Source: Paludibacteraceae bacterium (GTDB lineage Bacteria > Bacteroidota > Bacteroidia > Bacteroidales > Paludibacteraceae). From it: a DNA stretch of 22,538 nt. Under the pieces are notes generated by a model. That model made no database searches. It was not told where the DNA came from and saw only the letters and a list, made by a program, of their open reading frames with translations. Positions 1,220-22,082 of the stretch are shown piece after piece. Numbering within the stretch: position 1 is the stretch's first letter; every line of letters begins with the position of its first letter. The stretch is from assembly GCA_017542915.1 (NCBI GenBank), contig JAFXWI010000011.1:1-22538 (forward strand), in the 5' to 3' direction. The translations under genes and the position numbers were made by a program.

Positions 1220-1261
1220 ATGAATTTACCAGATTCCGAAAAACCAAAACATTTTCGGGTG

Positions 1262-4719: not shown

Positions 4720-4727
4720 ATGAAATA

Positions 4728-4783
4728 AAAAATTAAAAATTAAGAATTAAAAATTCAATATTCAAAAGTCAAAATTCAAAATT
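4728..4783. repeat. Tandem heptamer repeat, eight units, mnmA/exporter junction
   Basis: Eight consecutive 7-nt units fit the consensus (A/C)AAAATT with one or two changes each, and they fill almost the whole spacer between the exporter stop and the mnmA start. The exporter stop codon (4784-4782) overlaps the last unit. Confidence 0.85.
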
Positions 4784-6638
4784 ATTGTTGCATATCGACG
4801 AGTTTGGTGTAATAGCCACCGAGGGCGTAGAGATCATCGTGGGAACCGCGCTCGACGATGCGTCCCTCGTGCATGACACAGATGAGATCGGCATGTTTGA
4901 TCGTTGAGAGACGGTGCGCAACGACGAGCGTTGTACGCTCTTTCATCAGGTGCTCCAACGCCTCCTGCACGAGTCGTTCAGACTCGGAGTCGAGCGCCGA
5001 AGTAGCCTCGTCCAAGATGAGGATAGGCGGGTTCTTAAGGATCGCTCGTGCGATTGAGAGACGCTGCCGCTGACCTCCCGAGAGACGACTTCCGCGGTCA
5101 CCGATGACGGTCTCGTAGCCTTCCGGCATGTCGGAGATGAACTGATGGGCATTGGCGATCTTCGCTGCCTGCTCTACTGCCTGCTGCCAAGTCATGCCGT
5201 TAGGCGCAGGGAGCGAGGTGTCCACACCGAAAGTGATGTTGTTATAGACGGTATCGTTGAAGAGGATCGGTTCTTGGCAGACGATACCCATCAGGGCACG
5301 CAGGTCGTATGTACGATGGTCACGGATATCGGTGCCATCGATGGTGATGGTACCTTGATCGGGGTCGTAGAAACGAGGCACGAGATCGGTCATGGTCGTC
5401 TTACCGCTACCCGACTGTCCGACCAACGCCACGGTCTTACCTTTGGGCACTTCGAGACAGATATCCGTCAGCACTTCGCGATCCGCCTGATAAGAGAAAT
5501 GCACATGGTTGAAAGTGATGGCATCATTGAAGACGACCGGTTTGGGCTTCTTCGGATCCACTATATTCGACTCCGTCGTGAGGATAGCGTCTATACGCTC
5601 CAAGGAAGCAACACCTCGGCGGATGCCGTAAGAGGCTTTACTGAGGTCTTTGGCAGGATTGATGATGGAATAGAAGATGACGAGGTAATAGATAAACGTC
5701 GCCGCATCGATGGTAGCATGATCGCTGAGGATGAGCAGTCCACCGAACCAGAGGATGATAGCGATAAGCGCCGTTCCGAGGAACTCGGAGAGCGGATGTG
5801 CCAAGTAATAACGGCGGTTGATGCGGTTGAAGGTAGCACGTGTGGCATTGATGAGCGCCGTGAAACGCGTGCGGAGCTTATGCTGCGCATTGAATCCCTT
5901 TACTACGCGCAAACCCAAGAGGGTCTCGTCGATGGAGGAGAGGATCTCGGCGTTCTGCTCCTGACCGCGGGTAGAGGCTTTCTTGAGGCTTCGGCCTATA
6001 CGTCCGATGAAGAAGACCGCAATGGGCATCAACAGCAGCACGAAGATCGTCAGCTGCCAAGAGATCACCAACAGGGTGAAGAGATAGACAAGGATCATCA
6101 CCGGATCCTTGAAGAGGATGTCCAAAGCGGACATGATCGAAGCTTCCACCTCGCCCACATCATTCGTCATACGAGAGATGACATCTCCGCGTCGTGCTTC
6201 GGTGAAATAGCCCATAGGCAGGGAGAGCACTTTCTCGTACAACTGCTGACGCAGATCGCGGAGCACACCTGTCCGGATAGGTACCATGTAGTAGTTCGCT
6301 AACCACGCTGTGAGACACTTGGCACCCGTCATGATGACGAGGAAGACGCCTAAAAGAAACAGCACGTACCCCGCGCCGTGCAAGGCTATCTGCTCGTTGA
6401 GCAGGCAGTACATGTTCGTTCGCAGCGCAGCCATCATTTCCTGCAAGCCGTGTACGGAGGACATGCTGACGCGTGTCGCCTCCTCGGTACTCAGACCAAA
6501 GAGGATTCGCAGGACCGGAATGATGGCAGCGAACGAGAAAAGGGACAAGATCGTGGACAGCAGGTTGAAGAGGATATTCAACGCCATCTGGGTCTTATAC
6601 GGAGGTACAAACCGTTTTATCAAATGAAAGAAATTCAT
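4782..6638 (-). CDS. msbA: MsbA-type ABC exporter, fused permease and ATPase
   Basis: A 618-residue half-transporter expected to act as a homodimer in the inner membrane. The N-terminal part (about 1-335) holds the six-helix exporter domain, with clear hydrophobic segments near 18-46, 90-115, 180-212 and 286-325. The ATPase domain follows: Walker A GQSGSGKTT (407-415), Q-loop CQEP (454-457), signature LSGGQ (519-523), Walker B ILILDEATSALD (539-550) and H-loop His575. It lies directly after lpxK with one base between stop and start (TAA-T-ATG), so translation is coupled. In Escherichia coli msbA and lpxK also form an operon, in the reverse order, so flipping of lipid A or its precursor is the likely job. 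The family also includes drug and peptide exporters, so the substrate is inferred from context. Confidence 0.88.
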   Translation of the reverse strand: MNFFHLIKRFVPPYKTQMALNILFNLLSTILSLFSFAAIIPVLRILFGLSTEEATRVSMSSVHGLQEMMAALRTNMYCLLNEQIALHGAGYVLFLLGVFLVIMTGAKCLTAWLANYYMVPIRTGVLRDLRQQLYEKVLSLPMGYFTEARRGDVISRMTNDVGEVEASIMSALDILFKDPVMILVYLFTLLVISWQLTIFVLLLMPIAVFFIGRIGRSLKKASTRGQEQNAEILSSIDETLLGLRVVKGFNAQHKLRTRFTALINATRATFNRINRRYYLAHPLSEFLGTALIAIILWFGGLLILSDHATIDAATFIYYLVIFYSIINPAKDLSKASYGIRRGVASLERIDAILTTESNIVDPKKPKPVVFNDAITFNHVHFSYQADREVLTDICLEVPKGKTVALVGQSGSGKTTMTDLVPRFYDPDQGTITIDGTDIRDHRTYDLRALMGIVCQEPILFNDTVYNNITFGVDTSLPAPNGMTWQQAVEQAAKIANAHQFISDMPEGYETVIGDRGSRLSGGQRQRLSIARAILKNPPILILDEATSALDSESERLVQEALEHLMKERTTLVVAHRLSTIKHADLICVMHEGRIVERGSHDDLYALGGYYTKLVDMQQ

Positions 6639-6639
6639 A

Positions 6640-7656
6640 TTATTTGCGACAATTTTCGTGTACGTAGTTCAGTATATGCCGGTCAAACGCCTCTTTGGGC
6701 GTACAGAAACACATACGTATAGGCAGGGCGATGAGTTTTTTGCCCTGTTCGAGCAGACGGGCTTCCAAATCCGTTGTTTGGAGGCGCTGCATATCTTTCT
6801 CGGTAGTAAGCACAAAATCAAAGGGTTTTGTGCGTTGGATGATCTCCTCTATCTCTTTCTTGGAGAAGACATGATGATCGGGGAACGCCATGAGTTGCGC
6901 ATGAGGATAGAGGGTCTGCACGTGCTCCAAGAGATATTGGGGTTGCGCTATACCGCAGAGTACGAGAGGCGTACCCTCCTGCTCTATGGGCGCATAGTCG
7001 ATGCCCGCGAAATGGAGATGCTGATAGGAGGGCAGATGGAGTCGGTTATCGACCACCCTCATGTCAATAGGCCGGATGGTGTCGGGACACTTGGTGACGA
7101 CGATAGCATCTGCTTTGAGTGCTCGTGAGGGCAGGTCACGCAACCTGCCCCACGGCAACATATGGTCATCTATATAGAGACGGTCATAGGGGGTGAGAAG
7201 AACGGTGTAGCCGCAGCGGATGGAGCGATGCTGCATCGCGTCGTCGAGCACTACTACGTCCAGCGTCTTCAACTGCCGTTGGAGCTGCTTGACACCTCTT
7301 ACGCGATGCTCGCAGACCGCCATGGGCACCTCGGGGAACTTACGATGCAGCTGCATCGCCTCGTCCCCTATGGTAGCCGCAGAAGCGTTGGCGTCCGCCA
7401 ATACAAATCCGTGTGTCTTGCGTTTATAGCCTCTGGAAAGAACAGCAGGATGATAGCCGTTCTCCAAAAGCAGGCGTAACAGGTACTCCACCATGGGCGT
7501 CTTGCCGGTTCCTCCCACGGCGAGGTTGCCCACACAGATGGTGGGAACCGTCACCGAATGCGACAAGAACAGATGCTTGTCGTACAGGAAATGCCGTATA
7601 GCTACGCCCAAAGCGTACAAGCCACTTAACGGAACTGTAAAAATCTGCTTCAACAT
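6640..7656 (-). CDS. lpxK: Tetraacyldisaccharide 4'-kinase LpxK
   Basis: A 338-residue enzyme that phosphorylates the 4' position of the lipid A disaccharide precursor at the inner face of the cytoplasmic membrane. The P-loop GNLAVGGTGKTP (43-54) is the characteristic LpxK form, preceded by a hydrophobic, membrane-associating N-terminus. GDEA (97-100) and VVLDDAMQHR (135-144) match the catalytic and Walker B-like segments of the family; the usual DDxxQHR pattern is intact. TTEKDMQR near the C-terminus is also typical. The length is normal. It follows sppA in the operon and is coupled to the MsbA-like exporter, its pathway partner. Confidence 0.94.
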   Translation of the reverse strand: MLKQIFTVPLSGLYALGVAIRHFLYDKHLFLSHSVTVPTICVGNLAVGGTGKTPMVEYLLRLLLENGYHPAVLSRGYKRKTHGFVLADANASAATIGDEAMQLHRKFPEVPMAVCEHRVRGVKQLQRQLKTLDVVVLDDAMQHRSIRCGYTVLLTPYDRLYIDDHMLPWGRLRDLPSRALKADAIVVTKCPDTIRPIDMRVVDNRLHLPSYQHLHFAGIDYAPIEQEGTPLVLCGIAQPQYLLEHVQTLYPHAQLMAFPDHHVFSKKEIEEIIQRTKPFDFVLTTEKDMQRLQTTDLEARLLEQGKKLIALPIRMCFCTPKEAFDRHILNYVHENCRK

Positions 7657-7670
7657 TCGTCTTTTATCAT

Positions 7671-7718
7671 TAGTCCATTAGCATTCATCCTCTCATCCTC
7701 TAATCCACTAATCCATTA
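7671..7718. repeat. Tandem octamer repeat, six units, lpxK/sppA junction
   Basis: Six 8-nt units run through this spacer. The four nearest sppA are variants of ATCC(T/A)(C/T)T(C/A), namely ATCCTCTC, ATCCTCTA, ATCCACTA and ATCCATTA; the two at the lpxK side (TAGTCCAT, TAGCATTC) are more diverged. The sppA stop codon lies inside the last unit. Confidence 0.75.
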
Positions 7719-9500
7719 TTTAATCTCTACTTCGGGCATGAGCGCCATGATACGAGGTTTGGATGCAAACTCACGCACTTTCATGATCAGACGCTCCTCT
7801 TCAGTCGTGTTATCGAGCAGTTTGAGCAGTTCCTCATACGGATCTGTCTTAGCCGGATAATACGTCAGTTGGTACGATTCCAAGCCTGCCAACTCTACTG
7901 CTTTATTGATAGCGTCATCGATGTTACCGAGTTCGTCTACGATACCGATCTCTTTGCCCTTGGCACCAAGCCAAACACGTCCTTCGCCGATTGACTTGAT
8001 GTAGCTCTGCTCTACATGACGACCCTCTGCACAACGGCTGGTAAAGAGGTCATAGCCGCGCTCGATCATCTCCTGCATGAGAGCACGCTCGGAGTCATTG
8101 AGACCATTGTAGAGCATGTTGCCCTCCATTGCGGAGTGTTTGTTGGTAGAAACGCCGTCGATGTCGAGACCTATCTTATTGCGCAGTTTAGCCACCGAAG
8201 GAATGGTACCGAAGATACCGATTGAGCCGGTGAGAGTAGTCGGTTCGGCATAGATATAATCCGCGCCGCAGGAGATATAGTATCCACCGGAAGCGGCGTA
8301 GTCACCCATCGAGACAACTACCGGGATATTTTTCGATTTGATATTCTGGATAGCATGCCAGATCTGCTCGCTGGCATCCGCCGAACCACCCGGGCTGTTG
8401 ACACGAAGAACCAAGGCTTTGATATCTTCGTCCTTGCCGATCTTCTTGATGGTCTTGACCACTTTCTTACCCACGATACCGTCACCGGAATCATCGGTGA
8501 TCTCTCCTTCGAGGTAGAGAACCGCCACTTTCTCTTTGGCTTTGGATTTCGGACGCTCTACCTGAGCCAGCTTAGGAGTAGTCAGCATGTGGTAGTCCTT
8601 CGTACCGGTATAAACACGCAGCAGCGAATCTATATCCTGACAATAGACGATGGTGTCCACGAGACCGGCTTCGAGGTTCGCTTTTGCGGACTGCACGCCC
8701 ATGAAACGATCTGCCAAAGCGTCGAGTTGCGCTACGTCCATATGACGGGAAGCAGCTACCGCTGTTTTGTACTCATCCCAGATGCCGCCAATGTACTGCA
8801 TCGTCTGCATTCTGTCAGCGTCAGACATAGATGTGCGGAAGAAAGGCTCTACCGCCGATTTGAAGGTACCGACTTTGAGGATCTGCATCTCTACGCCGAT
8901 TTTCTCCAATACGCGCGTGTAGTACATCTTCTGTGCCGCAAGACCTTTCCAATCCACCGAACCGGTCGGATCAAGACAGATGCGGTCAGCGACGGAAGCT
9001 ACGTAGTAGTTGGTCTGACCATAGTTCTTAGCCGAAGCGAGAATCCATTTGCCGCTTTGCTTGAAGTCCAAGAGTGCGTCACGGATCGCTTTGGCGTTCG
9101 CAGGAGCCATACTGAGCTCTGCTCCATCGAGCCAGATACCCAAGATCTTGTCATCATTCTTCGCCAGACGGATGTTCGAGAGAACCTGATCGAGACCGAC
9201 CGTCTCCCCGTTGTTATTACGTCCGAAGGGTACTTCGGGCATTGCGCCCATGAGTTCAGCAAAGGGGCTTGCCTCTTGTGCCTGCTCGACCAGTTCACCC
9301 TTCATCTGAAGACGATAGATGGTCTTGTCCTCCAGTTTGACGGTGGAGGAAGAGAACATGTCTCCCATCAACCAGCCTAAAAGGGCACTGCACAGGAAAT
9401 ACACTGCGAAGAAAATAAGGCAGCCACCGAGGCAACCGATTCTGCGACGAGGACGAGCCTGTCCGCCCTCTGTCTGTACATTTTGACGAATAAAAATCAT
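7716..9500 (-). CDS. sppA: Signal peptide peptidase SppA, 67K type
   Basis: A 594-residue inner-membrane serine protease of family S49 that degrades cleaved signal peptides and other membrane fragments. A short basic cytoplasmic N-terminus (RPRRR at 16-20) is followed by one transmembrane segment (about 22-46), then two tandem S49 domains on the periplasmic side. The catalytic Lys is Lys214 in GTFKSAVEPF (211-220) and the nucleophile is Ser404 in MGDYAASGGYY (398-408), in keeping with the Lys/Ser dyad split between the two halves in the long form of the family. TLTGSIGIFG (422-431) is also conserved. It lies between rnhB and lpxK in the minus operon, with repeat-filled spacers on both sides. 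Confidence 0.95.
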   Translation of the reverse strand: MIFIRQNVQTEGGQARPRRRIGCLGGCLIFFAVYFLCSALLGWLMGDMFSSSTVKLEDKTIYRLQMKGELVEQAQEASPFAELMGAMPEVPFGRNNNGETVGLDQVLSNIRLAKNDDKILGIWLDGAELSMAPANAKAIRDALLDFKQSGKWILASAKNYGQTNYYVASVADRICLDPTGSVDWKGLAAQKMYYTRVLEKIGVEMQILKVGTFKSAVEPFFRTSMSDADRMQTMQYIGGIWDEYKTAVAASRHMDVAQLDALADRFMGVQSAKANLEAGLVDTIVYCQDIDSLLRVYTGTKDYHMLTTPKLAQVERPKSKAKEKVAVLYLEGEITDDSGDGIVGKKVVKTIKKIGKDEDIKALVLRVNSPGGSADASEQIWHAIQNIKSKNIPVVVSMGDYAASGGYYISCGADYIYAEPTTLTGSIGIFGTIPSVAKLRNKIGLDIDGVSTNKHSAMEGNMLYNGLNDSERALMQEMIERGYDLFTSRCAEGRHVEQSYIKSIGEGRVWLGAKGKEIGIVDELGNIDDAINKAVELAGLESYQLTYYPAKTDPYEELLKLLDNTTEEERLIMKVREFASKPRIMALMPEVEIK

Positions 9501-9502
9501 AA

Positions 9503-9550
9503 CATTTACTATTTAAACATTTATTGGTTCATTTGGTCATTGGGTCATTT
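9503..9550. repeat. Tandem octamer repeat, sppA/rnhB junction
   Basis: Six 8-nt units occupy the spacer and run into the end of rnhB. GTTCATTT, GGTCATTG and GGTCATTT are the clearest; those toward sppA (ATTTATTG, ATTTAAAC, CATTTACT) are more diverged. The rnhB stop codon (9531-9529) and its last few codons (NDPMTK) are written in the repeat. Confidence 0.75.
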
Positions 9551-10158
9551 AGTTTCAAGTTAAAGGTCAGGCGGTGATAAGGGGTGACGCCGTATTTCTT
9601 CAATGCTGCATAGTGTTCGGCGGTGGGATAGCCTTTGTTGTTCGACCACCCGTATTGGGGGAACTGCTCATGAAGACGGAGCATGTACTCATCCCGATAG
9701 GTCTTCGCCAAGACACTTGCTGCCGCTATGGACATATAGGTGGCATCGCCGTGTACGACTGTGTCTGCGGGTATCTCCAGCAGTTCGCCTTCCGGCACGT
9801 ACGGTTTCCATTTATTGCCGTCCACGAGGATATGTTGCGGTCTGATACTCAGTTTGTCCAAGGCTCGCTGCATTCCCAAGATGGAGCATTGGAGGATGTT
9901 TCGTTCGTCAATCTCCTGCGCCGTCACTTCGACCACTGCCCAAGAGAGGGCTTCTCGCTCGATGACCGGACGCAAGGCTTCGCGTTGTTTCCCGGTCAGC
10001 TGCTTGGAGTCGTTGAGCCACGCGAACTCCGGGATCTGCTCCACCCTCTTCGGATCAAGGATCACCGCTGCGCAGAACACGCTGCCCGCTAACGGTCCTC
10101 TTCCCGCCTCGTCACATCCGGCTTCGATCAGCCATGATATCATCTGGGTTTTCAGCAT
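9529..10158 (-). CDS. rnhB: Ribonuclease HII
   Basis: A 209-residue cytoplasmic nuclease that cuts the RNA strand of RNA-DNA hybrids and removes single ribonucleotides from DNA. The metal-binding acids are visible: Asp16 and Glu17 in GCDEAGRGPLAG (14-25), Asp113 in ILVDGNKW (110-117) and Asp138 in GDATYMSIAAASVLAKTYRD (137-156). The C-terminal NNKGYPTAEHYAAL block (173-186) is also typical. Start choice is between Met1 and Met6; both fit, because the first catalytic segment follows within 10-15 residues. The last residues (NDPMTK) are encoded by an octamer repeat, so the tail is probably not conserved. Confidence 0.95.
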   Translation of the reverse strand: MLKTQMISWLIEAGCDEAGRGPLAGSVFCAAVILDPKRVEQIPEFAWLNDSKQLTGKQREALRPVIEREALSWAVVEVTAQEIDERNILQCSILGMQRALDKLSIRPQHILVDGNKWKPYVPEGELLEIPADTVVHGDATYMSIAAASVLAKTYRDEYMLRLHEQFPQYGWSNNKGYPTAEHYAALKKYGVTPYHRLTFNLKLNDPMTK

Positions 10159-10164
10159 TGTCTA

Positions 10165-10204
10165 ATTATCATAGGTATTCATAGGTAGACCTAGGTCTTC
10201 CTAG
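10165..10204. repeat. Tandem decamer repeat, four units, rnhB/tamL junction
   Basis: Four 10-nt units (ATTATCATAG, GTATTCATAG, GTAGACCTAG, GTCTTCCTAG) fill the 42-nt spacer. The tamL stop codon (10203-10201) lies in the last unit. Each unit ends in ATAG or CTAG. Confidence 0.78.
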
Positions 10205-12375: not shown

Positions 12376-13118
12376 GATTCCAGCCTTCTAAATTCCGCAA
12401 GAACAATCGCGGTAGCAATCGAGACATTCAAGCTCTCCGAAGTCTCCGCGTCTTTGGGATAAGAGGGAATACGAATAGCGTGAGTGATGAGTTTGCGGAC
12501 AGGCGCGCTGATGCCGTTTCCTTCATTGCCCATGACGATTATCCTCAATCCCCCCTTAGAGGTGGGAAGAAGGGATTCGCTTGAGAGGGTCTCATAGAGA
12601 TCTTTGCCGTCCAGCAGCGTACCGTAGATCCGAAGATCTGAATGCTGCAATCTGAATGCTGAGATCTCTTTGACCAAATCCACGTAATGTACGCGCACGC
12701 GTGCAAGCGCCCCCATAGTAGCCTGTACGACCTTGGGGTTATAGCAGTCCGCAGTGTCCCGAGAGCAGAAGATATCATGCACGCCAAACCAATCGCATGT
12801 GCGAATGATCGTTCCTAAATTTCCCGGATCCTGAATACCGTCGAGCGCCAAGACAAGTCCGTCCGTAGAAGGCAAGAAGGTATCCTCCGGACGTTTCCGG
12901 AAGATACCTATCGTGCCTTGCGGCGTACGCAACCCGCTCATCTGCTCGATGGAGGTGCGATCTGCATTCTCACCTTCTCGATACAGATTGACGAGTTCAA
13001 ACGCTTTCTGCAACTCTTCCACACATTTATCACCCTCGGCTACAAAAAGCCCGAGTTCATCGCGGAATTTTTTCTGTTGCAGGGAGCGCACTTGTTTTAT
13101 TTGCGCTTTGCTAACCAT
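12372..13118 (-). CDS. TrmH-family (SPOUT) RNA 2'-O-methyltransferase
   Basis: A 248-residue cytoplasmic enzyme that methylates a ribose 2'-hydroxyl in rRNA or tRNA with S-adenosylmethionine. SpoU motif 1 is ALDGIQDPGNLGTIIRTCDW (91-110) with Asn100 and Arg106, motif 2 is IVMGNEGNG (194-202), and motif 3 is ESLNVSIATAI (228-238); together these form the trefoil knot. The N-terminal part resembles the substrate-binding domain of RlmB-like members, but the RNA target cannot be told. Two stretches, about 153-160 and 181-190, are encoded by repeat-like DNA (a 14-nt tandem repeat and an imperfect palindrome) and look inserted into loops before motif 2. It starts 11 nt after the thrS stop and overlaps tamL. 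Confidence 0.9.
   Translation of the reverse strand: MVSKAQIKQVRSLQQKKFRDELGLFVAEGDKCVEELQKAFELVNLYREGENADRTSIEQMSGLRTPQGTIGIFRKRPEDTFLPSTDGLVLALDGIQDPGNLGTIIRTCDWFGVHDIFCSRDTADCYNPKVVQATMGALARVRVHYVDLVKEISAFRLQHSDLRIYGTLLDGKDLYETLSSESLLPTSKGGLRIIVMGNEGNGISAPVRKLITHAIRIPSYPKDAETSESLNVSIATAIVLAEFRRLES
12549..12567. repeat. Imperfect palindrome inside the trmH-family gene
   Basis: T+CCCCCC (12549-12555) pairs with GGTGGG+A (12561-12567) with one mismatch and a TTAGA loop. It is translated on the minus strand as part of LLPTSKGG, just before SpoU motif 2. Placement in a protein loop is like that of the palindrome in mnmA. Confidence 0.5.
12636..12667. repeat. 14-nt tandem repeat inside the trmH-family gene
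   Basis: ATCTGAATGCTGCA (12636-12649) is repeated as ATCTGAATGCTGAG (12650-12663) and followed by ATCT. The unit is twice seven nucleotides. It encodes part of the stretch SAFRLQHSDL near residues 153-162. Confidence 0.7.
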
Positions 13119-13129
13119 GTACTGAACAC

Positions 13130-15073: not shown

Positions 15074-15145
15074 AAATATAAAAAATAAACCTACAAATGT
15101 TTACGGCCAAGGGGCTCACAACCGCTCCTTCGCACAAATCGGGTA

Positions 15146-15177
15146 CAAAGGTACAACAATTTTGGGACATATGCAAA
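15146..15177 (-). promoter_or_regulatory. Promoter of the thrS operon, extended -33
   Basis: On the minus strand TTTG at 15177-15174 starts the -33 element TTTGCATATGTC, and TACCTTTG at 15153-15146 is the -7 element, with 20 bases between. It is the only convincing promoter found upstream of the eight-gene minus operon. Confidence 0.78.
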
Positions 15178-15205
15178 TAAAAACGAATAAAAATTTGCAT
15201 ATGTC
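15166..15205. repeat. 13-bp inverted repeat formed by two divergent -33 elements
   Basis: GACATATGCAAAT (15166-15178) is the exact reverse complement of ATTTGCATATGTC (15193-15205), with an A-rich 14-nt spacer. Each arm contains the -33 element of one of the two divergent promoters. The symmetry could be only the result of two identical -33 elements, or it could be a binding site shared by both operons. Confidence 0.8.
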
Positions 15206-15225
15206 AGGAAAAAGCAGTACTTTTG
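15195..15225 (+). promoter_or_regulatory. Promoter of the nuclease operon, extended -33
   Basis: TTG at 15195-15197 begins TTGCATATGTCA, and TACTTTTG at 15218-15225 is the -7 element, with 20 bases between. The start codon of the nuclease gene is at 15243, about 11 nt past the expected transcription start, so the leader is very short. Confidence 0.78.
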
Positions 15226-15242
15226 CAAACAATTTTAAATGA

Positions 15243-16055
15243 ATGAATATCATGAGACGAACCATTTCTCTATTTTTAGTGGGTCTGATGCTGTGTGCAG
15301 TTGTACAACCGGCATTTAGCTGGGGTCAAAAAGGACATCGGATTATTGCCAAGATCGCGTACGACAACTTACATCGCAAAGCCCGCAAGGCGGTGGACAA
15401 GATCTTAGGTCCGCAAGGGATGATCTACAATGCCAATTGGGCGGATGAGATCAAGAGTGACAACATCTATCCGCAGAGTATCAAGGACGGCTGGCATTTT
15501 CAGGATTTCGAAGGCGGTTTGAGTGATTCCATCGTAGCCGACGCGTTGACACACTATCCGTCAGAAGGCGGCAGTCTGTTTAGGGTGTTGGATTCGCTGG
15601 AGTTGGAGATGATCACCGAGAAATACTCGGAGAGCAATGCGGATCATATTCTGCGATTTTTGGTTCACCTGAACAGCGACCGTTATTGCCCGATGCACAT
15701 AGCGCACATGAGCGACCGCGGGGGCAATGACGTGAAGATGAAATGGTTCGGACGCGAGACTCGGCTTCACACGGTTTGGGACACAGATCTCATAGAATCA
15801 CAGGGTTACAGCTACACCGAGTACGCGCAGATGCTGCAAAACACGTTCAGAGATTCCAAAAAACGAATAGAGCAGATGAGCGATGAACAGCTGTTGGTGG
15901 ATTGCTATCACATGACCGATGCGATCTATAAATATCAGGAGATTTGGGACGGTAACACGTATCATTATATATACACGTGGCGCGAACCGATGGAGGAGCA
16001 GCTGTATATTGCAGGTATTCGTTTGGCGAAACTGCTGAATGAGATATATAAGTAG
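15243..16055 (+). CDS. Secreted S1/P1-family nuclease
   Basis: A 270-residue zinc nuclease, predicted to be exported, that cuts single-stranded DNA and RNA and may release 3'-phosphate. The signal peptide is residues 1-26 (cleavage AFS-W), which makes Trp27 the new N-terminus, as the family needs because that Trp is itself a zinc ligand. All nine zinc ligands of P1 nuclease can be matched by position and order: Trp27, His32, Asp68, His85, His142, Asp146, His152, His176 and Asp180. The length is near normal. ATG 15243 is chosen; Met4 (15252) would also leave a workable signal peptide. It is the first gene of a plus-strand operon with a DUF5020 protein and an NhaC-family antiporter. Confidence 0.93.
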   Translation: MNIMRRTISLFLVGLMLCAVVQPAFSWGQKGHRIIAKIAYDNLHRKARKAVDKILGPQGMIYNANWADEIKSDNIYPQSIKDGWHFQDFEGGLSDSIVADALTHYPSEGGSLFRVLDSLELEMITEKYSESNADHILRFLVHLNSDRYCPMHIAHMSDRGGNDVKMKWFGRETRLHTVWDTDLIESQGYSYTEYAQMLQNTFRDSKKRIEQMSDEQLLVDCYHMTDAIYKYQEIWDGNTYHYIYTWREPMEEQLYIAGIRLAKLLNEIYK

Positions 16056-16092
16056 TTGAAAGTTGAAGGTTGAGAGTTGAGAGTTGAAGGTT
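16054..16092. repeat. Tandem heptamer repeat, five units, nuclease/DUF5020 junction
   Basis: Five 7-nt units AGTTGAA, AGTTGAA, GGTTGAG, AGTTGAG, AGTTGAA and a partial GGTT run from inside the nuclease stop codon to the base before the next ATG. The repeat thus makes up the whole spacer and the whole ribosome-entry region of the DUF5020 gene. Confidence 0.87.
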
Positions 16093-16863
16093 ATGAAGAA
16101 GATATGTTTAGTTATCGGGTTTGTACTGTGTGCGTTGGGGTCATGGGCAGGAACGAACATCCAGTTGTATTACGACTTCGGCAATCTGAACACGGCTTGT
16201 AAGAACGAGCGTTCAAACCGCGTGACGACCACCGTGGAGTTGTTCTACACCGACCCGTGGGGATCGACTTTTGCGTTCATCGACATGGATTACGCGATTC
16301 ATCCGAACGACCCGAAGAACACGGTCTTTTTGGCGTACGGAGAGATTGCAAGATGCCTGAATTTCTGGCATCAGAGTCCGGCAAAAGATCTGAGCGTGCA
16401 GGTGGAATACAACGGCGGTTTGGGTTTAGGCAGAGCCGACACAGGCGGCATGATCGGTTATGGTATCAACCACGCCGGTTTGGTGGGTCTGAACTACTGT
16501 CTGCACACTGCTGATTACAAGAACATCTTCAATCTCGAGCTGCTCTACAAATATATCGCAGGCAGCAACAACGGTTTCAAGAACAAAGCGCCGTTGCAGT
16601 TCACGTTCGTTTGGGGCTGCGATGATTTCTGTCTTGCTCCGGGTTTGCGGTTCAGCGGATTTTTGGATATATGGGGTGAGCGGGATTTTCAGGACAAACA
16701 GAGCTGGGTGTTGCTCACCGAGCCGCAGCTTTGGTACAACGTCGGACGATGGTTCAAATGCCCGAACCTGAATATCGGAACGGAGATCGAGTTGAGTTAT
16801 AACTTCACCGGTTCGGGATTCATGTGCAACCCGTGTTTAGGTATCAAATGGACGTTTGATTAA
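16093..16863 (+). CDS. DUF5020-family outer-membrane protein
   Basis: A 256-residue protein with a signal peptide (about 1-18, ending SWA) and a pattern of alternating hydrophobic residues that fits a small beta-barrel. NIQLYYDFGN near the mature N-terminus and TTTVELFYTDPWGSTFAFID (about 45-64) are the parts I match to DUF5020; the C-terminus is GIKWTFD. The family resembles the Tsx type of nucleoside channel, though I recall that from family knowledge and cannot test it here. Its place between a secreted nuclease and an inner-membrane transporter fits uptake of nucleic-acid breakdown products (inference). The ATG at 16093 is preferred; a TTG three codons upstream lies inside the heptamer repeat. 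Confidence 0.82.
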   Translation: MKKICLVIGFVLCALGSWAGTNIQLYYDFGNLNTACKNERSNRVTTTVELFYTDPWGSTFAFIDMDYAIHPNDPKNTVFLAYGEIARCLNFWHQSPAKDLSVQVEYNGGLGLGRADTGGMIGYGINHAGLVGLNYCLHTADYKNIFNLELLYKYIAGSNNGFKNKAPLQFTFVWGCDDFCLAPGLRFSGFLDIWGERDFQDKQSWVLLTEPQLWYNVGRWFKCPNLNIGTEIELSYNFTGSGFMCNPCLGIKWTFD

Positions 16864-16895
16864 GTTTTTAGACAAAAGGTAAAATAGGTATTAGT

Positions 16896-18164: not shown

Positions 18165-18175
18165 GCATGAAAAAC

Positions 18176-18215
18176 AAATATAGGGTGTGCCGATTGACAC
18201 GCCCTATATTTTTTT
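18176..18215. terminator. Bidirectional intrinsic terminator
   Basis: The 14-nt arms at 18176-18189 and 18198-18211 pair fully apart from one G-T pair, with an 8-nt loop. A T-run follows on the plus strand and an A-rich run precedes, so it can end both the antiporter operon (plus) and the DUF4301 gene (minus). It begins 11 nt after the antiporter stop. Confidence 0.93.
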
Positions 18216-18230
18216 GGTACTTGGTACGTA

Positions 18231-19592
18231 TTACTGATGTTGCTCGCGGAGGAGATCGTTAACGGTCTTCACGGGGTTGAAGGTCGAAACGGGCACCTCC
18301 ACAAAGATAGTGTTCCATTTAGCCATCGCACCGTTCCAGAGACCCGGTAACTCCAAAGCCAACAGTTCTTTACCGTCCTTGGACTTGCTGGAGATGAAGC
18401 CCGTCTTCGGATCCACATAATCCGGCAGGTTGAACGGTTTGCCTTCGTAGTCGCGGATAGCACAAACGAGATCAACCGGATTGAAGTGAGTCGATTGCGC
18501 CATGAGTGCCGGATCGCTGATCTGGGTCGATTCGAGAATCTGGCAAGAGATAGAACCATCTTCATCGCGCACAAGGAACGGACCACCACCGGGTTCTCCG
18601 GTGTTCTTCACTACGCCGCAGACACGGATAGGACGATTCAGTTTCGCACGCTCTTCGTCACTCAGGTCGGGGTTCTTGAGTGCCTCGAAGACGCGTTTCT
18701 GCTCCGTTACCAGCACTCCGGCAAGGATCTGTTTGTAACGAATCGTATCTTTCTTGAGACGGTCAGGCACCACATTATCAATGTTCTTGATGAAAACAAT
18801 ATCGGCATCCTGCTGGTTGAGGTTCTCAATGAGCGCACCATGACCACCCGGACGGAAGAGCAACTTACCGTCTTTCGTACGGAACGGCGTGCCATCGGGA
18901 TTAGCAGCGATGGTATCGGTGGACGGTAACTGCTCGCTGAAAGTGACGTCATACTTAACACCGTATTTCTGTTCAAACTTCGCCAAGTTGTCGGCTATAT
19001 GCTGACGGAAAAGGGGCAGATGGTCATGACTAACCGTAAAATGCAGATACACAACGGGTTTCTCACCATCTTTAGCCGGAGCTACGCAGTACTGCGCGCC
19101 CTCCACGAGGTGCTCCAAAGCCGGTGTACGCGCACCATCACGGTACTTATGGAAGAGCAACAAACCTTTCGGCAGTTCGCCATAATGCATGTCGTTCAAG
19201 AGGTAACGAACGGCTTCCTGACCTTCCTTACCCGCGAGCTGCGGACCGAAAGCGAAACAATCTTTGTGTGCCAAGAAATCCTGAATGAAAGGCGTCTCGA
19301 TACCGTCCTCCAAGTACTGGAAGAGGTTCTTGAACATACGGCTTGCAGCACCCGAAGCCGGGACGAACTTGAGGATCTTGTGTCCCTCCTCCAAATACTT
19401 CTGCCAAGCGTTGATGTACTCCTCCTGCTCGGCACGCTTAGGAGCCAAGATACCCTTTTTCGTCGAAGCCGGAGCTACGATATCCAACTCAGGAAAACCC
19501 GTTCGGAAGCATTCTAACTGCGCTTCCGCTTTCTCTACGGAGATGCCACGAGCCTGTAACTGCTCGAGGTCTTGTGCGGTGAAATTGTTCAT
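18231..19592 (-). CDS. DUF4301-family protein
   Basis: A 453-residue soluble protein without signal peptide. FVPASGAASRMFK (76-88) and LLFRPGGHGALIENL (244-258), followed by IKNIDNVVPD (268-277), are the recognisable blocks. Their look, a Gly-rich loop and a Pro-Gly-Gly-His-Gly turn followed by an Asn-Asp pair, recalls UDP-sugar pyrophosphorylases and other nucleotidyltransferases; this is an inference from motif shape only. The biological role is unknown. It is a single-gene unit with its own promoter (19633-19663) and terminator (18176-18215), lying where the rest of the division cluster is often found downstream of murG. Confidence 0.88.
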   Translation of the reverse strand: MNNFTAQDLEQLQARGISVEKAEAQLECFRTGFPELDIVAPASTKKGILAPKRAEQEEYINAWQKYLEEGHKILKFVPASGAASRMFKNLFQYLEDGIETPFIQDFLAHKDCFAFGPQLAGKEGQEAVRYLLNDMHYGELPKGLLLFHKYRDGARTPALEHLVEGAQYCVAPAKDGEKPVVYLHFTVSHDHLPLFRQHIADNLAKFEQKYGVKYDVTFSEQLPSTDTIAANPDGTPFRTKDGKLLFRPGGHGALIENLNQQDADIVFIKNIDNVVPDRLKKDTIRYKQILAGVLVTEQKRVFEALKNPDLSDEERAKLNRPIRVCGVVKNTGEPGGGPFLVRDEDGSISCQILESTQISDPALMAQSTHFNPVDLVCAIRDYEGKPFNLPDYVDPKTGFISSKSKDGKELLALELPGLWNGAMAKWNTIFVEVPVSTFNPVKTVNDLLREQHQ

Positions 19593-19632
19593 GGATGTAT
19601 ATGGTTATTTGTGTTTGTTCGCCTTTGCGGTG

Positions 19633-19663
19633 CAAAGTTACAACAAAAAAATGACATACGCAA
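19633..19663 (-). promoter_or_regulatory. Promoter of the DUF4301 gene, extended -33
   Basis: On the minus strand TTGC at 19663-19660 begins TTGCGTATGTCA and TAACTTTG at 19640-19633 is the -7 element, with 20 bases between. The leader to the ATG at 19592 is about 35 nt. Confidence 0.8.
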
Positions 19664-19680
19664 GAACGCACGTCATTTTT
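19647..19680 (-). terminator. Probable murG-operon terminator overlapping a promoter
   Basis: AAAAATGAC (19647-19655) and GTCATTTTT (19672-19680) are perfect 9-bp arms around a 16-nt loop. Read on the minus strand the hairpin is followed by a T-run, 20 nt after the murG stop. The GC content of the stem is low, so strength is uncertain. The -33 element of the DUF4301 promoter lies in the loop and one arm. Confidence 0.6.
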
Positions 19681-19700
19681 CTGTCTTTTTATTTAAAAAT

Positions 19701-20780
19701 TCACTCTTTTTGCCTCTTTGCCAGCTTCATCACCTCTTCCGCAATGCGTTTGGCGGAGTCTTTCTGCGCCAACTGGAGGATGTTTTCGTGAAGTGTCTGA
19801 AGGCGTTTCTCGTCCTTGATCAATTCCAAAGCCGTCGGGATGAGTTGTTCCGCAGCCTCGACATCCTTCACCAGCACCGCCGCTTCTTTGTTCACCAACG
19901 CCATGGCATTATGGGTCTGATGATCCTCCGCCACGTTCGGTGAGGGCACCAAGATAGCCGGTTTGCCCAACAGACAGAGTTCGCTGATGGAGGAGGCCCC
20001 GGCACGCGAAATCACCAAATCCGCATTCGCATAACGATCCGGCATGTCGCTCAGGAAATCGAGACACTCGATATTGCCCGGACTACCGGCAGCTGTCCAT
20101 GCCTCTTTGCATTTCTCGAAATACACTTTTCCGGTCTGCCAAACGAGGTGAATATCGCTCTTAGCCAAAAGCGGAAGCGCCGCTTTCACTGCCTCATTGA
20201 TCGTTCGTGCACCCAAAGAGCCGCCGATGATCAGGAGGTTCTTTTCTCCTTTCACCTTTGATTTTTCCCCTTTCAGCAAGTTCTGACGCACAGGGTTGCC
20301 GGTGAGGATAATCTTGTCCGCCGGGAAGAAACGCTCCATGCCTTCGTACGCCACACAGATCTTCGAGGCTTTGTTTTTGAGGATCTTATTGGTCACACCC
20401 GCAAAGCCGTTCTGCTCTTGGAGCAAGATAGGAATACCCATCTTCGCAGCCTGCCACATAGCGGCACCCGAAGCGTATCCGCCGACTCCAACTCCCACAT
20501 CCGGCCTAAAATCGCGGATGATCTTCTTCACCTGCCGCAGCGATTTGAACAGATCCATCAGTACGGACACGTTCTTCCACGGCTGTGAACGGTTGAAGCC
20601 CCGTACGGGCAGACCCACGATCTTATACCCGGCTTGCGGTACACGCTCCATCTCCATACGACCGAGCGCACCCACAAACAAAATCTCCGCCTCCGGATCC
20701 AGTTCCTTCAGCGCGTTCGCTATACTCACTGCGGGGAAAATATGTCCTCCGGTTCCCCCTCCGGATATTAGGTATCGCAT
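19701..20780 (-). CDS. murG: MurG, lipid II synthase
   Basis: A 359-residue peripheral membrane glycosyltransferase (GT28) that adds GlcNAc to lipid I to make lipid II on the cytoplasmic face. ISGGGTGGHIFPAVSIANAL (5-24) is the N-terminal Gly-rich motif; VGVGGYASGAA (97-107) and the QEQNGFAG turn (121-128) follow. The C-terminal nucleotide-sugar domain holds IIGGSLGARTIN (184-195), SRAGASSISEL and the ILVPSPNVAEDHQTHNA block. Between the domains, residues 170-180 (KGEKSKVKGEK) are encoded by a heptamer repeat where family members usually have a different linker. It is the last gene of the murD-ftsW-murG run; murC, the usual next gene, is not there. Confidence 0.95.
   Translation of the reverse strand: MRYLISGGGTGGHIFPAVSIANALKELDPEAEILFVGALGRMEMERVPQAGYKIVGLPVRGFNRSQPWKNVSVLMDLFKSLRQVKKIIRDFRPDVGVGVGGYASGAAMWQAAKMGIPILLQEQNGFAGVTNKILKNKASKICVAYEGMERFFPADKIILTGNPVRQNLLKGEKSKVKGEKNLLIIGGSLGARTINEAVKAALPLLAKSDIHLVWQTGKVYFEKCKEAWTAAGSPGNIECLDFLSDMPDRYANADLVISRAGASSISELCLLGKPAILVPSPNVAEDHQTHNAMALVNKEAAVLVKDVEAAEQLIPTALELIKDEKRLQTLHENILQLAQKDSAKRIAEEVMKLAKRQKE
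20241..20275. repeat. Heptamer repeat inside murG
   Basis: Five 7-nt units on the plus strand (CTTTTCT, CCTTTCA, CCTTTGA, TTTTTCC, CCTTTCA) lie in-frame in murG and encode the Lys/Gly/Glu-rich linker near residues 169-180. Confidence 0.65.
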
Positions 20781-20784
20781 ATCT

Positions 20785-20808
20785 AATGTTAATTAGTTAA
20801 AACGTTAA
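20785..20808. repeat. Tandem octamer repeat, three units, murG/ftsW junction
   Basis: AATGTTAA, TTAGTTAA and AACGTTAA fill most of the 32-nt spacer between the ftsW stop and the murG start. Each ends in GTTAA. Confidence 0.65.
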
Positions 20809-20812
20809 GGGC

Positions 20813-22060
20813 CTATTCCAGCGTAACAATAGGTGCATCTTCAAGACTCTCAGCGGTGGTCTCGTGTACGCGTTCGCGTAACTCTTTCTGCTCACGGCTC
20901 ACACCCATCATGATGCCAAAATAGATCGACGTGATCAAGACCGATGTACCTCCTCGGCTGATGAGGGGCAAAGGTTGTCCGGTCACGGGTCCCAAACCCA
21001 CCGCCACAAGCATGGAGATAAGCGCCTGACAGGTGATCATCAATGCCAGACCCATCGTCATCAGCATTGCCGGCATGTCCGAATAGCGGCTCGACACATT
21101 GCACGCCCTGAAAAGAATAGCCAAATACAGGAAAATCAAAAACGCTGCACCTATCACACCCGACTCCTCCACAATGATCGCAAAAATATAATCCGCAAAA
21201 GCCAAAGGCAGATAATCGCGTTCCTTGCTGTTTCCGGGCAGCACGCCCACCGGCGAAGCCCCCCCACGGGCTATCGCTACAGCGGAATATACCTCTTGGA
21301 TATTATCGTCCGTCAGCACATATTTAGAGCCTCCCTCATCCGTGAAATGCCGGTCTATACGGCTGACCCACGTAGTAGCGCGTTTGAAAGGTCCGCTCAT
21401 CTGTCTGCCCGGTCGGACAAAGCCAAACTCCACTATCGCGTAGCCCAACACCAACGCGACCACCGCAATGCCCGCCACCGAAAGGGTGTATTGCCATGGG
21501 ATGCGGGCAAGTATCCATAAACAGAAGATAATCAATCCAATGAGCACTGCAGTCGAGAGGTTCGAAGCCATGATAGGCAACATCACCACCCCTGCAATGA
21601 TCAGTGTTCGGAAGAAATATTTCTTCTTATCCTCCTCGGTGCGGATACGTGCCAATTGGTCGGCTACGACGATGATCAGACTCAGCTTAGCCAACTCGGA
21701 AGGCTGGAATGTGATGCCGGCAATACGTACCCAACGCGCCGCACCGTTGATCGTCACCACTAACGGATTGCCCGGAATCATCGTCGAGAAAACCAACAGC
21801 GTACTGATTGCCAACAAAGCGTATCCGCCAAAACGCACCCAATAGGACGGGATATATTGTATTACGAACGCCGCAAGGACGCCTAAGACGATGAAAAACA
21901 TCTGTTGTCCGATAGGTCCCAACGCTGAATGATGCATATACACCAAAGTGCTCGACGCCGAGAAAAGCGCGATGATAGCCACGATGATGAGCGCTATGAA
22001 CAGCCCCCAGAACGTGCGGTCAATATATTTAAGATTGATGTTGGGCACGATGAGATTCAA
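20813..22060 (-). CDS. ftsW: FtsW, septal SEDS glycosyltransferase
   Basis: A 415-residue inner-membrane protein with about ten transmembrane segments that polymerises lipid II at the septum with a partner class b penicillin-binding protein. NGAARWVRIAGITFQPSELA (105-124) is the family motif. GNSKERDYLPLAFADYIFAI (276-295) holds the likely catalytic Asp290, followed by Glu298 and Glu299; GLGPVTGQPLPLISRGGTS is the conserved C-terminal motif. No ATG is found at the N-terminus: the choices are TTG at 22060, given here, or GTG at 22048, and an in-frame stop lies just above, inside the heptamer repeat. Position between murD and murG supports FtsW over the related RodA. Confidence 0.93.
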   Translation of the reverse strand: MNLIVPNINLKYIDRTFWGLFIALIIVAIIALFSASSTLVYMHHSALGPIGQQMFFIVLGVLAAFVIQYIPSYWVRFGGYALLAISTLLVFSTMIPGNPLVVTINGAARWVRIAGITFQPSELAKLSLIIVVADQLARIRTEEDKKKYFFRTLIIAGVVMLPIMASNLSTAVLIGLIIFCLWILARIPWQYTLSVAGIAVVALVLGYAIVEFGFVRPGRQMSGPFKRATTWVSRIDRHFTDEGGSKYVLTDDNIQEVYSAVAIARGGASPVGVLPGNSKERDYLPLAFADYIFAIIVEESGVIGAAFLIFLYLAILFRACNVSSRYSDMPAMLMTMGLALMITCQALISMLVAVGLGPVTGQPLPLISRGGTSVLITSIYFGIMMGVSREQKELRERVHETTAESLEDAPIVTLE

Positions 22061-22082
22061 AATTTAAAATTCAAAATTATAG
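22055..22082. repeat. Tandem heptamer repeat at the ftsW/murD junction
   Basis: Units ATTCAAA, ATTTAAA, ATTCAAA and a diverged ATTATAG run from the first codons of ftsW into the end of murD. The murD stop (22079-22077) is in the last unit and the TTG start of ftsW is in the first. Confidence 0.7.

What the first reader, a model, noticed from the sequence alone, without database searches (positions are those of the whole stretch)
4728..22082. Junction-specific tandem repeats of period 7, 8 or 10 in operon spacers
Six intra-operon junctions longer than about 15 nt carry a short degenerate tandem array with a strict period: 7 nt (4728-4783, 16054-16092, 22055-22082), 8 nt (7671-7718, 9503-9550, 20785-20808) and 10 nt (10165-10204), counting the exporter/mnmA spacer with the first group. 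The unit sequence is different at each site, so these are not copies of one mobile element. Arrays begin or end at stop codons and start codons. Gene pairs with overlapping or near-abutting ends (trmH/tamL, lpxK/msbA, thrS/trmH) have none; the 32-nt spacer before the antiporter has only a weak hint. This suggests a local process, such as slippage or repair-linked duplication, that acts on non-coding junctions in this lineage.
Basis: seen in the sequence. Interest (0 to 1): 0.72.

Follow-up and report, generated by a model that had tools for sequence, protein, structure and literature searches.

The report
Fast-swapping 7-nt repeat arrays between genes
In a group of uncultured rumen bacteria, short repeats of mostly 7 or 8 letters keep overwriting gaps between genes and loose loops inside proteins, and near-identical strains carry quite different repeats at the same spot, which makes it possible to study how such repeats are born and spread.

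Summary
The arrays are real: of the seven listed, six beat 2000 shuffles (0-5 reach the score); 20785-20808 does not. The phenomenon is genome-wide: in 415 kb of the nearest genome, 154 intergenic arrays against 4.2 expected, periods 7>>8>11/14, none at 4-6. Units are not site-specific: species have their own vocabularies, one heptamer pattern matching 131 times in one genome and not at all in 21 of 25 genomes of its genus. Arrays are not confined to junctions: some sit, in frame, in protein loops (MurD, MnmA, TrmH). Some are replaced wholesale: three strains 96-97% alike carry three unrelated repeat patches at sppA|lpxK, the flanks being at background divergence beyond 15 nt upstream and up to 60 nt downstream. 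Best model: 7/8/11-nt duplication makes and lengthens arrays, copies spread to other loci by short-patch ectopic replacement, and selection leaves them where frame and function permit. The kind is known (long simple sequence repeats; cyanobacterial and Xanthomonas heptamers; TAACTGA repeats). Species-specific vocabularies that overwrite both junctions and loops are a new variant. The copying step is inferred, not shown.

The parts
4723..4784 (.). period-7 array filling the ABC exporter|mnmA spacer, beginning at the exporter stop codon (coding strand TAATTTTGAATTTTGAC...)
   Evidence: TRF; 0 of 2000 shuffles; other arrays plus a composite insertion in L070 (G001), same unit type but shorter in L113
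7671..7718 (.). period-8 array in the sppA|lpxK spacer, beginning at the sppA stop codon (TAATGGATTAGTGGAT...)
   Evidence: 0 of 2000 shuffles; L113 has a CTGAACT-type array and L070 a patch with two ATGTACGAAGG copies there; the L070 patch is below my array score
9503..9550 (.). period-8 array across the rnhB 3' end and the rnhB|sppA spacer; contains the rnhB stop codon
   Evidence: 2 of 2000 shuffles; unit changed in part and 20 nt longer in G001
10165..10204 (.). period-10 array with a 12-nt palindrome (AGACCTAGGTCT) in the bamA-like|rnhB spacer
   Evidence: 1 of 2000 shuffles; stop-to-start stretch 48/48 identical in L100 with flanks 75-77%; replaced in L070 by a period-14 array
16054..16092 (.). 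period-7 array in the S1/P1 nuclease|DUF5020 spacer, beginning at the stop codon (TAGTTGAAAGTTGAAGG...)
   Evidence: 0 of 2000 shuffles; same unit and same length (37 nt) in L070
22055..22082 (.). period-7 array in the murD|ftsW spacer, beginning at the murD stop codon
   Evidence: 5 of 2000 shuffles; G001 has a longer period-7 array there (71 against 54 nt for the differing stretch)
20785..20808 (.). claimed period-8 array in the ftsW|murG spacer: not above chance
   Evidence: 218 of 2000 shuffles reach the score; the spacer edge 20809-20831 differs in G001 (23 against 51 nt)
3515..3615 (.). period-7 and period-11 arrays filling much of the convergent rbr|mnmA gap
   Evidence: TRF; 1 of 500 shuffles for 3587-3615
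22249..22299 (.). period-7 array inside murD (CTTTCGACTTTTGA); G001 has a CCCTCTCC...GGAGAGGG patch at the same place, still in frame
   Evidence: TRF; alignment; differing stretch 103 against 76 nt, a difference of a multiple of 3
12634..12667 (.). period-14 array inside trmH, of the same unit type (ATCTGAATGCTGAA) as the G001 array in the bamA-like|rnhB spacer
   Evidence: TRF; blastn match window 12628-12667 to L070 7719-7757, 90%; G001 trmH has it too
3805..3895 (.). variable loop of MnmA carrying a period-16 stretch (AGGACGCTAACGCTAC type); G001 has a period-8 array there, in frame (91 against 79 nt)
   Evidence: TRF (3813-3849)
20243..20275 (.). weak period-7 stretch in murG; no structural difference from G001 there
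   Evidence: TRF (score 31)

Best explanation
The arrays belong to species-specific families of degenerate 7-, 8- and 11-nt tandem repeats that occur throughout the genomes of this Paludibacteraceae-type rumen lineage. (1) Tandem duplication in steps of one unit makes and lengthens arrays, in part seeded by the stop or start codon region itself. (2) Array stretches are copied to other loci as short patches (about 20-200 nt) that replace what lay there and leave the flanking genes intact beyond some 15-60 nt, as in short-patch ectopic (illegitimate) recombination or template switching. (3) Purifying selection removes patches that break a frame, so survivors lie between a stop and the next start codon, or in frame in tolerant protein loops. 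The first in-frame stop and a start codon inside the patch become the new gene ends, which puts the stop codon in the repeat register. Shown: genome-wide excess, species-specific vocabularies, whole replacement with intact flanks, 7-nt steps, in-frame loops. Inferred: patch copying as the route, and near-neutrality. Unknown: why 7, 8 and 11.
For: Excess and period spectrum: 154 intergenic arrays against 4.2 in shuffles, 7:64, 8:29, 11:15, 14:15, none at 4-6. Lineage: 2.77 arrays per 10 kb in 54 loci against 0.54 in stretches of 20 other Bacteroidota genomes, with one period-7 array in 388 kb, and one array (period 18) in 50 kb of E. coli. Dispersal: one heptamer pattern has 131 matches in G001, 34 in G024, 3 in two others, 0 in the remaining 37 of 41 genomes; exact 18-mers shared with a locus at least 1 kb away in the same genome sample in 37/97, 16/55, 9/43 and 39/83 arrays, against 2/97 to 11/55 between genomes and 1-6 of 300 random 32-mers; period-15 units alike in 20 of 55 pairs and period-16 in 10 of 91, null 0; the boundary between two heptamers recurs 13 times in G001 and is absent from 24 of 41 genomes. 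Replacement: window, L070 and L113 (96-97% in sppA) have three unrelated patches at sppA|lpxK; upstream-gene divergence at swapped junctions is raised only in the last 15 nt (14.9% against 6.2% at unswapped ones). Steps: sppA|lpxK spacers of 0, 6, 13 and 20 nt before ATGCTGAA (L077, L072, L103, L071). Frame: periods that are multiples of 3 are relatively commoner in genes (odds ratio 3.6, p 0.0015). MutS kept in 20 of 21 genomes, which fits the lack of short periods.
Against: No donor-recipient event is dated or proven; the trmH-to-rnhB case in L070 could be separate seeding, since rnhB itself begins ATGCTGAAA. Repeat register continues into the downstream gene start more than expected (215 of 495 bases against 168.6), which also fits local seeding without copying. 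In one search the reversed control pattern also had 16 matches in five genomes of the genus (0 in G001), so other heptamers of like make-up abound. Units of periods 10 and 18 are not shared (0 of 10 and 0 of 21 pairs) and those of periods 9 and 11 barely (1 of 36, 3 of 120). RecJ, whose loss is recalled to raise short-patch recombination, is present in 38 of 41 genomes, array-rich ones included. Some arrays are old: the AAATCTC array at abc|mnmA is shared by many species, and the window's period-10 spacer is 48/48 identical in L100 although flanks are 75-77% alike. 'Swapped' means spacer identity of 75% or less, so it includes pure length changes. Microhomology at patch edges was not tested.
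Confidence: 0.58

Rival explanations
1. Purely local slippage or repair-linked duplication at junctions: each array is expanded from sequence at its own stop or start codon, and turnover is birth and death in place.
For: 7-nt steps between L071 and L103 and the spacer series 0/6/13/20 nt; units matching the adjoining gene start (CTGAATA before ATGCTGAA) and gene end (ATTGTAA after ...ATTGTAA in L098, nearly so in L097); register continues into stop codon and gene start.
Against: Species-specific units at many unlinked loci and absent from sisters; shared period-15 and period-16 units; patches in protein loops; S1P1|DUF5020 keeps its length between window and L070 while other junctions are wholly replaced.
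Confidence: 0.17
2. Allelic homologous recombination between co-resident strains swaps whole spacers, so that the diversity is old and merely reshuffled.
For: L103 and L071 carry at rnhB|sppA alleles that resemble those of other lineages, last codons of rnhB included; L070 and L111 share a composite spacer that their close relatives window, L113 and L084 lack.
Against: In close pairs the divergence is at background beyond 15 nt upstream of swapped junctions and beyond 15-60 nt downstream (rows), so tracts would have to be extraordinarily short; does not explain units shared between non-orthologous loci.
Confidence: 0.1
3. The arrays are functional elements (translation coupling, several stop codons in different frames, protein or RNA binding), kept by selection for period rather than sequence.
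For: Periods 7, 8, 10 and 11 are not multiples of 3, so copies can place stop codons in several frames; some arrays abut start codons; MacGregor 2015 proposed translational regulation for TAACTGA repeats (abstract read); the period-10 spacer is strongly conserved between distant relatives.
Against: Short junctions are common (129 of 264 core junctions are under 16 nt); unit, length and period change between near-identical strains; arrays also in protein loops.
Confidence: 0.08
4. An unrecognised copying enzyme, for example a reverse transcriptase with a repeat template or a mobile element, writes the arrays.
For: Preferred unit lengths, species-specific vocabularies, bursts of one unit in one genome, a composite core with arrays at both ends whose core pattern occurs 10 times in G076, 6 in G092, 2 in G001 and 0 in 78 of 81.
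Against: Tens of different units in one genome (39 heptamer consensus units in the G001 sample, some one letter apart) would need as many templates; no inverted ends or target duplications were noticed in the spacers printed, though none were searched for; no candidate gene was searched for.
Confidence: 0.07

Closest known systems
Long simple sequence repeats (LSSR) of 5-11 nt in prokaryotes (Mrazek et al. 2007, not seen itself; as described in the introduction of PMC4679880, read)
   Same: Tandem units of 5-11 nt longer than chance, heptamers the most abundant, units that are multiples of 3 favoured in genes, scattered phylogenetic distribution; polymerase contact length offered as the cause of 7.
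   Different: Here arrays are degenerate, 101 of 191 tandem spacers over 15 nt of the G001 sample hold one, units form species-specific vocabularies shared across loci, and whole patches are replaced between near-identical strains.
Heptamer repeats of cyanobacteria and Xanthomonas (STRR, name recalled; GGGGA(C/T)T in Nostoc, GGGAATC in Xanthomonas; passages of PMC4692102 seen)
   Same: Heptamer arrays at many intergenic loci; mostly the same gene pairs but different length and sequence in two related Xanthomonas; a G001 heptamer array resembles one on a plasmid of the cyanobacterium Gloeothece verrucosa (81.5% over 54 nt, E 2e-5), at the end of an oxidase gene. The only other plasmid hit was a 33-nt match in a Streptomyces (E 2e-3), so chance resemblance is possible.
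   Different: Those reports follow one to three units per genome; here 39 heptamer consensus units in 415 kb of one genome, plus 8-, 11-, 15- and 16-mers, and also in protein loops.
TAACTGA direct repeats of Beggiatoaceae, cyanobacteria and a few Bacteroidetes (MacGregor 2015, PMC4679880; abstract, introduction and section 10 read)
   Same: Intergenic heptamer arrays near start codons; two sets in Paludibacter propionicigenes; mostly 7-nt-step indels between two close Cyanothece.
   Different: The TAACTGA unit is not among the 39 heptamer units of the G001 sample; arrays here are not confined to the neighbourhood of start codons.
Rickettsia palindromic elements (recalled; only a search listing seen)
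   Same: Repeats that insert in frame into protein genes.
   Different: The arrays here are direct repeats; a hairpin-like patch does occupy the MurD site in G001.
Short-patch double illegitimate recombination (recalled; no paper on it in the listings)
   Same: Works like it: short stretches replaced by ectopic DNA, flanks intact.
   Different: Not demonstrated here; RecJ is present; microhomology not tested.

Membership tests
Long simple sequence repeats (LSSR, 5-11 nt) | tandem repeats of 5-11 nt longer than expected by chance | tested here: met
   154 intergenic arrays (periods 3-20) against 4.2 in shuffles; 6 of 7 listed arrays beat 2000 shuffles
Long simple sequence repeats (LSSR, 5-11 nt) | heptamers the most abundant class | tested here: met
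   64 of 154 intergenic arrays in G001; 164 of 289 in 54 loci
Long simple sequence repeats (LSSR, 5-11 nt) | units of length 3n favoured inside genes | tested here: met
   18 of 61 coding against 16 of 152 intergenic arrays, odds ratio 3.6, p 0.0015
Cyanobacterial STRR heptamers | same heptamer dispersed at many loci of a genome | tested here: met
   131 pattern matches in G001 on many contigs, overlapping matches within one array included
Cyanobacterial STRR heptamers | common descent with the cyanobacterial arrays | not testable with these tools
   one similar array on a Gloeothece plasmid; a 7-nt unit can arise twice
TAACTGA repeats | unit TAACTGA | tested here: not met
   not among the 39 heptamer units of the G001 sample; the window was not searched for the unit separately
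Slipped-strand microsatellites | copy number changes by whole units between close strains | tested here: met
   L071/L103 at sppA|lpxK (20 against 13 nt) and abc|mnmA (75 against 68); L070/L111 composite differs by 2 and 3 units as I read the printed sequences
Slipped-strand microsatellites | orthologous arrays of near-identical strains keep their unit | tested here: not met
   sppA|lpxK and bamA-like|rnhB in strains 96-97% alike; kept at S1P1|DUF5020
MITE or transposon | terminal inverted repeats and target duplications | not tested
   none noticed in the spacers printed; no systematic search
Short-patch double illegitimate recombination | ectopic donor in the same genome | tested here: inconclusive
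   an exact 18-mer elsewhere for 37 of 97 arrays, which does not show direction or event
Short-patch double illegitimate recombination | microhomology at both patch edges | not tested
   no edge analysis was run
Rickettsia palindromic elements | palindromic element inserted in frame | tested here: not met
   in-frame patches yes, but the arrays are direct repeats

The most novel reading that the evidence does not exclude
A dedicated or at least lineage-specific copying process, not classical slippage or homologous recombination, continually overwrites tolerant sites of these genomes (operon junctions, gene ends, protein loops) with patches from a species-specific repertoire of 7/8/11-nt arrays, fast enough to replace about half of the patches (5 of the 10 sites compared between window and G001, by my reading) while the genes diverge by 3-4%.
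Probability: 0.25. Interest if true: 0.85.

Novelty: new variant of a known kind. Interest (0 to 1): 0.62.

Why it matters
Heptamer arrays have been noticed in scattered bacteria without an agreed origin; the polymerase-contact idea explains the length at best, not the spread. Here sister strains with near-identical flanks and different arrays give before-and-after pairs, and species with their own vocabularies give possible donors and recipients, so slippage, ectopic copying and templated addition can be told apart. If patches really spread this way, spacer lengths, leader sequences and protein loop lengths in these rumen Bacteroidales are shaped to a large extent by a mutational process, and automated calling of start codons and loops in such genomes is affected.

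Tried and rejected
Rejected: arrays as chance in AT-rich spacers. Rejected: arrays as copies of one mobile element (many units). Judged unlikely: several stop codons as a selected function; the pattern also follows from stop codons lying inside a patch. Rejected as cause: loss of MutS (present in 20 of 21; the miss is a 68% complete genome) and loss of RecJ (present in 38 of 41, 37 over the cut-off). Weakened: allelic recombination tracts. Unit orientation relative to genes gave small counts and no rule. The period-10 spacer is not dispersed in the genomes sampled (1 of 81 within 2 mismatches), so its conservation is unexplained. Literature searches: (all ten allowed); their listings (10-25 titles each, fewer where fewer matched) showed no report of these arrays in this lineage, but only held open-licence papers are searched and lists are capped.

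Limits: gene calls in G001 are from my own hexamer script, start codons uncertain there and in the junction collection; period and score cut-offs are mine and differ between calls (10 to 14); unit names are majority consensus. The close-pair test used 13 of the 20 pairs found above 87% identity; seven pairs were left out. One search pooled only the upstream side; the downstream side was read row by row and in some rows is raised to 60 nt (window/L070 at sppA|lpxK: 40, 36, 17% in 0-15, 15-30, 30-60 nt). In one search the 8 differences at 1-3.6 kb were set aside, since that end of the window is less alike; one of them (1348-1475) bears an array. Most loci are metagenome-assembled genomes; read-level support was not available.
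Full report
What the window is. Pfam places conserved genes along the window: rubrerythrin, mnmA, an ABC exporter, lpxK, an S49 peptidase (sppA), rnhB, a BamA-like Omp85/POTRA gene, a SpoU methylase (trmH), thrS, an S1/P1 nuclease, DUF5020, a Na+/H+ antiporter, DUF4301, murG, ftsW and murD (short gene names are mine). The window's own assembly is not held. The nearest genome, G001, matches at 96-97% over most of the searched region and has a contig of the same length as that of locus L070, 'uncultured Bacteroidales bacterium RUG715'; I take them as the same genome. The other close loci are titled Paludibacteraceae or uncultured Bacteroidales, many with ruminant gut sources in their titles.

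The observation. Six of the seven listed arrays are above chance and one, 20785-20808, is not. Two of the listed sites share one unit type, and the arrays at 4722-4762 and 7685-7718 match other places in G001, so the statement that every site has its own unit fails.

It is genome-wide and lineage-specific. In 415 kb of G001 (four contig stretches; gene calls by script) I found 154 intergenic arrays against 4.2 in Markov shuffles and 66 in genes against 1.0. Intergenic periods: 7 in 64, 8 in 29, 11 in 15, 14 in 15, one at 3 and none at 4, 5 or 6. Arrays lie in 101 of 191 tandem, 11 of 21 convergent and 11 of 24 divergent spacers above 15 nt. At score 14 or more the density is 2.77 per 10 kb in 54 loci of the lineage (L070-L123) and 1.34 in 24 loci titled mostly Prevotella, Prevotellaceae or Muribaculaceae (L126-L149), with 0.26 in 8 stretches from other families of the order (4 arrays, none of period 7 or 8) and 0.54 in 20 stretches from the rest of the phylum (388 kb: one period-7 and one period-8 array, both in L230). 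A larger sample of one genome of another family has 0.50 at score 13, with 2 of 11 arrays of period 7. A 50-kb stretch of E. coli has one array, period 18.

Orthologous junctions. Ten gene pairs were collected from the window and the 80 loci. Among the window and L070-L123, 129 of 264 junctions are under 16 nt, and 85 of the 135 longer ones carry an array that at most 1% of shuffles reach, where 1.4 would be expected. In the three pairs printed, species without an array often have 0-4 nt or overlapping genes, though not always: to a large extent the arrays are the spacers.

Turnover. The window, L070 and L113 are 96-97% identical in sppA. At sppA|lpxK they carry a period-8 TGGATTAG array, a patch with two ATGTACGAAGG copies (below my array score) and a CTGAACT-type array after the same end of sppA. 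At abc|mnmA the window and L113 have TTTTGAA-type arrays of different length, while L070 keeps an AAATCTC array plus a composite insertion. At bamA|rnhB the window has the period-10 spacer and L070 an ATCTGAATGCTGAA array. S1P1|DUF5020 is unchanged in length. Between window and G001 in 3.6-22.5 kb, 14 structural differences were found. Ten change length: 2 are indels of 1-2 nt, and 8 lie at junctions or loops named above, 7 of these with a scored array in at least one strain. The other 4 are equal-length stretches rich in substitutions. At swapped junctions of 13 close pairs the upstream gene is more diverged in its last 15 nt (14.9% against 6.2% at unswapped junctions) and at background beyond (7-9%); on the downstream side the rows show raised divergence for 15-60 nt. 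Patches are therefore short. Stepwise change also exists: L071 and L103 differ by 7 nt, one unit, at sppA|lpxK and by 7 nt at abc|mnmA, and before ATGCTGAA the sppA|lpxK spacer is 0, 6, 13 or 20 nt in L077, L072, L103 and L071.

Dispersal. If arrays only grew in place, units would be private to loci. Instead the pattern TTRGTCRTTRGTCRTTRGTC has 131 matches in G001 (overlapping matches within one array included) on many contigs, 34 in G024, 3 in two others and none in the remaining 37 of 41 genomes, 21 of which are of the same genus; the reversed control pattern had 0 in G001 and 16 in five other genomes. Two period-7 arrays share their unit with probability 0.043-0.063 within a genome and 0.005-0.032 between the four genomes of the genus compared. 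An exact 18-mer elsewhere in the same genome sample exists for 37/97, 16/55, 9/43 and 39/83 arrays, less often between genomes (2 of 97 to 11 of 55), for 0 of 9 in a genome of another family, and for 1-6 of 300 random 32-mers. Period-15 and period-16 units are alike in 20 of 55 and 10 of 91 pairs of arrays with a null of zero; period 8 in 71 of 666 against 9.2; periods 9, 10, 11 and 18 hardly or not (1 of 36, 0 of 10, 3 of 120, 0 of 21). The boundary between two heptamers recurs 13 times in G001, 11 in G051, 10 in G030, and is absent from 24 of 41 genomes. A composite core occurs 10 times in G076, 6 in G092, 2 in G001 and not in 78 of 81.

Inside genes. The murD site 22249-22299 holds a heptamer array in the window and a hairpin-like patch in G001. 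The MnmA loop holds different patches in window and G001; both length differences are multiples of 3. A TrmH loop is hypervariable between conserved blocks, and some species encode peptides of period 7 there, such as SPITNNQSPITNHQ (L086) and KSKIENQKSKIEN (L097). Periods that are multiples of 3 are relatively commoner in genes. Selection on frame would thus explain why arrays concentrate at junctions, without a junction-specific process.

Why arrays start at stop codons. The stop codon fits the repeat register (127 of 207 bases against 111.3 expected from the same junctions of other species, 0 of 500 draws reach it) and the register continues into the start of the next gene (215 of 495 against 168.6, 0 of 500). 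Either the patch supplies the new stop and start codons or the array was seeded there. Local seeding is convincing in some cases, for instance ATTGTAA copies after a gene that ends ...ATTGTAA (L098).

Mechanism. I favour unit-step duplication plus short-patch ectopic replacement plus selection. The lack of periods 4-6 together with retained MutS (20 of 21 genomes) fits slippage loops too large for mismatch repair; that larger loops escape MutS is recalled knowledge. Short-patch double illegitimate recombination is the best-matching known process but is recalled, not found in the library, and loss of RecJ, recalled to aggravate it, is not the cause here.

Relation to what is known. Mrazek et al. 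2007, as summarised in the introduction of PMC4679880, found heptamers the commonest long simple repeats in most genomes. Rehm et al. 2015 (PMC4692102, passages seen) described dispersed heptamers in Xanthomonas and Nostoc, mostly between the same genes but with different lengths and sequences in two Xanthomonas. MacGregor 2015 (abstract, introduction and section 10 read) described TAACTGA repeats, two sets of them in Paludibacter. A G001 heptamer array resembles one on a plasmid of Gloeothece verrucosa. The present case is a new variant of that kind: many units at once, species-specific vocabularies, and replacement at both junctions and protein loops within 3-4% divergence.

Open. The window's period-10 spacer is 48/48 identical in L100 with flanks only 75-77% alike, was found in 1 of 81 sampled genomes within 2 mismatches, and contains a 12-nt palindrome; it may be a conserved element or a recent transfer. 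Whether any array has a function is not shown.

Noticed in passing
window 10158-10204: Period-10 spacer with the palindrome AGACCTAGGTCT, 48/48 identical (stop to start codon) in L100 although flanking genes are 75-77% alike; also near-identical in L081; lost in the much closer L070.
   Followed up: partly
L084, abc|mnmA junction (also L070, L111): The AAATCTC heptamer array reads through in frame from an ATG next to the exporter stop codon and could encode an N-terminal extension of MnmA (MSNLKSQIS...); read by eye, true start unknown.
   Followed up: no
window 15131-15266 and 19622-19710: Upstream regions with 25 and 12 matches elsewhere in G001 in the listing; probably a recurrent promoter-type sequence of the lineage.
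   Followed up: no
window 1253-1304: A 52-nt stretch with second copies in L070 and L113 at 92-96% identity.
   Followed up: no
L070 and L111, abc|mnmA spacer: Composite element: core with CTTACGGAGTTTGGT flanked by heptamer arrays that differ by whole units; the core pattern occurs 10 times in G076 and 6 in G092.
   Followed up: partly
G001 C37:104092, C37:107997, C50:54183, C50:111407 and others; window 3813-3849 looks related: Period-16 family AGCGGTCTTACAGCG(AAG), mostly inside genes in the sample; 9 exact matches in G001, 6 in G004, 3 in G027, 1 each in G003 and G033, none in the other 36 of 41 genomes.
   Followed up: partly
L126-L149 (Prevotella, Prevotellaceae and Muribaculaceae loci): Arrays also present at about half the density (47 in 352 kb, 23 of them period 7), so a second array-rich lineage may exist.
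   Followed up: no
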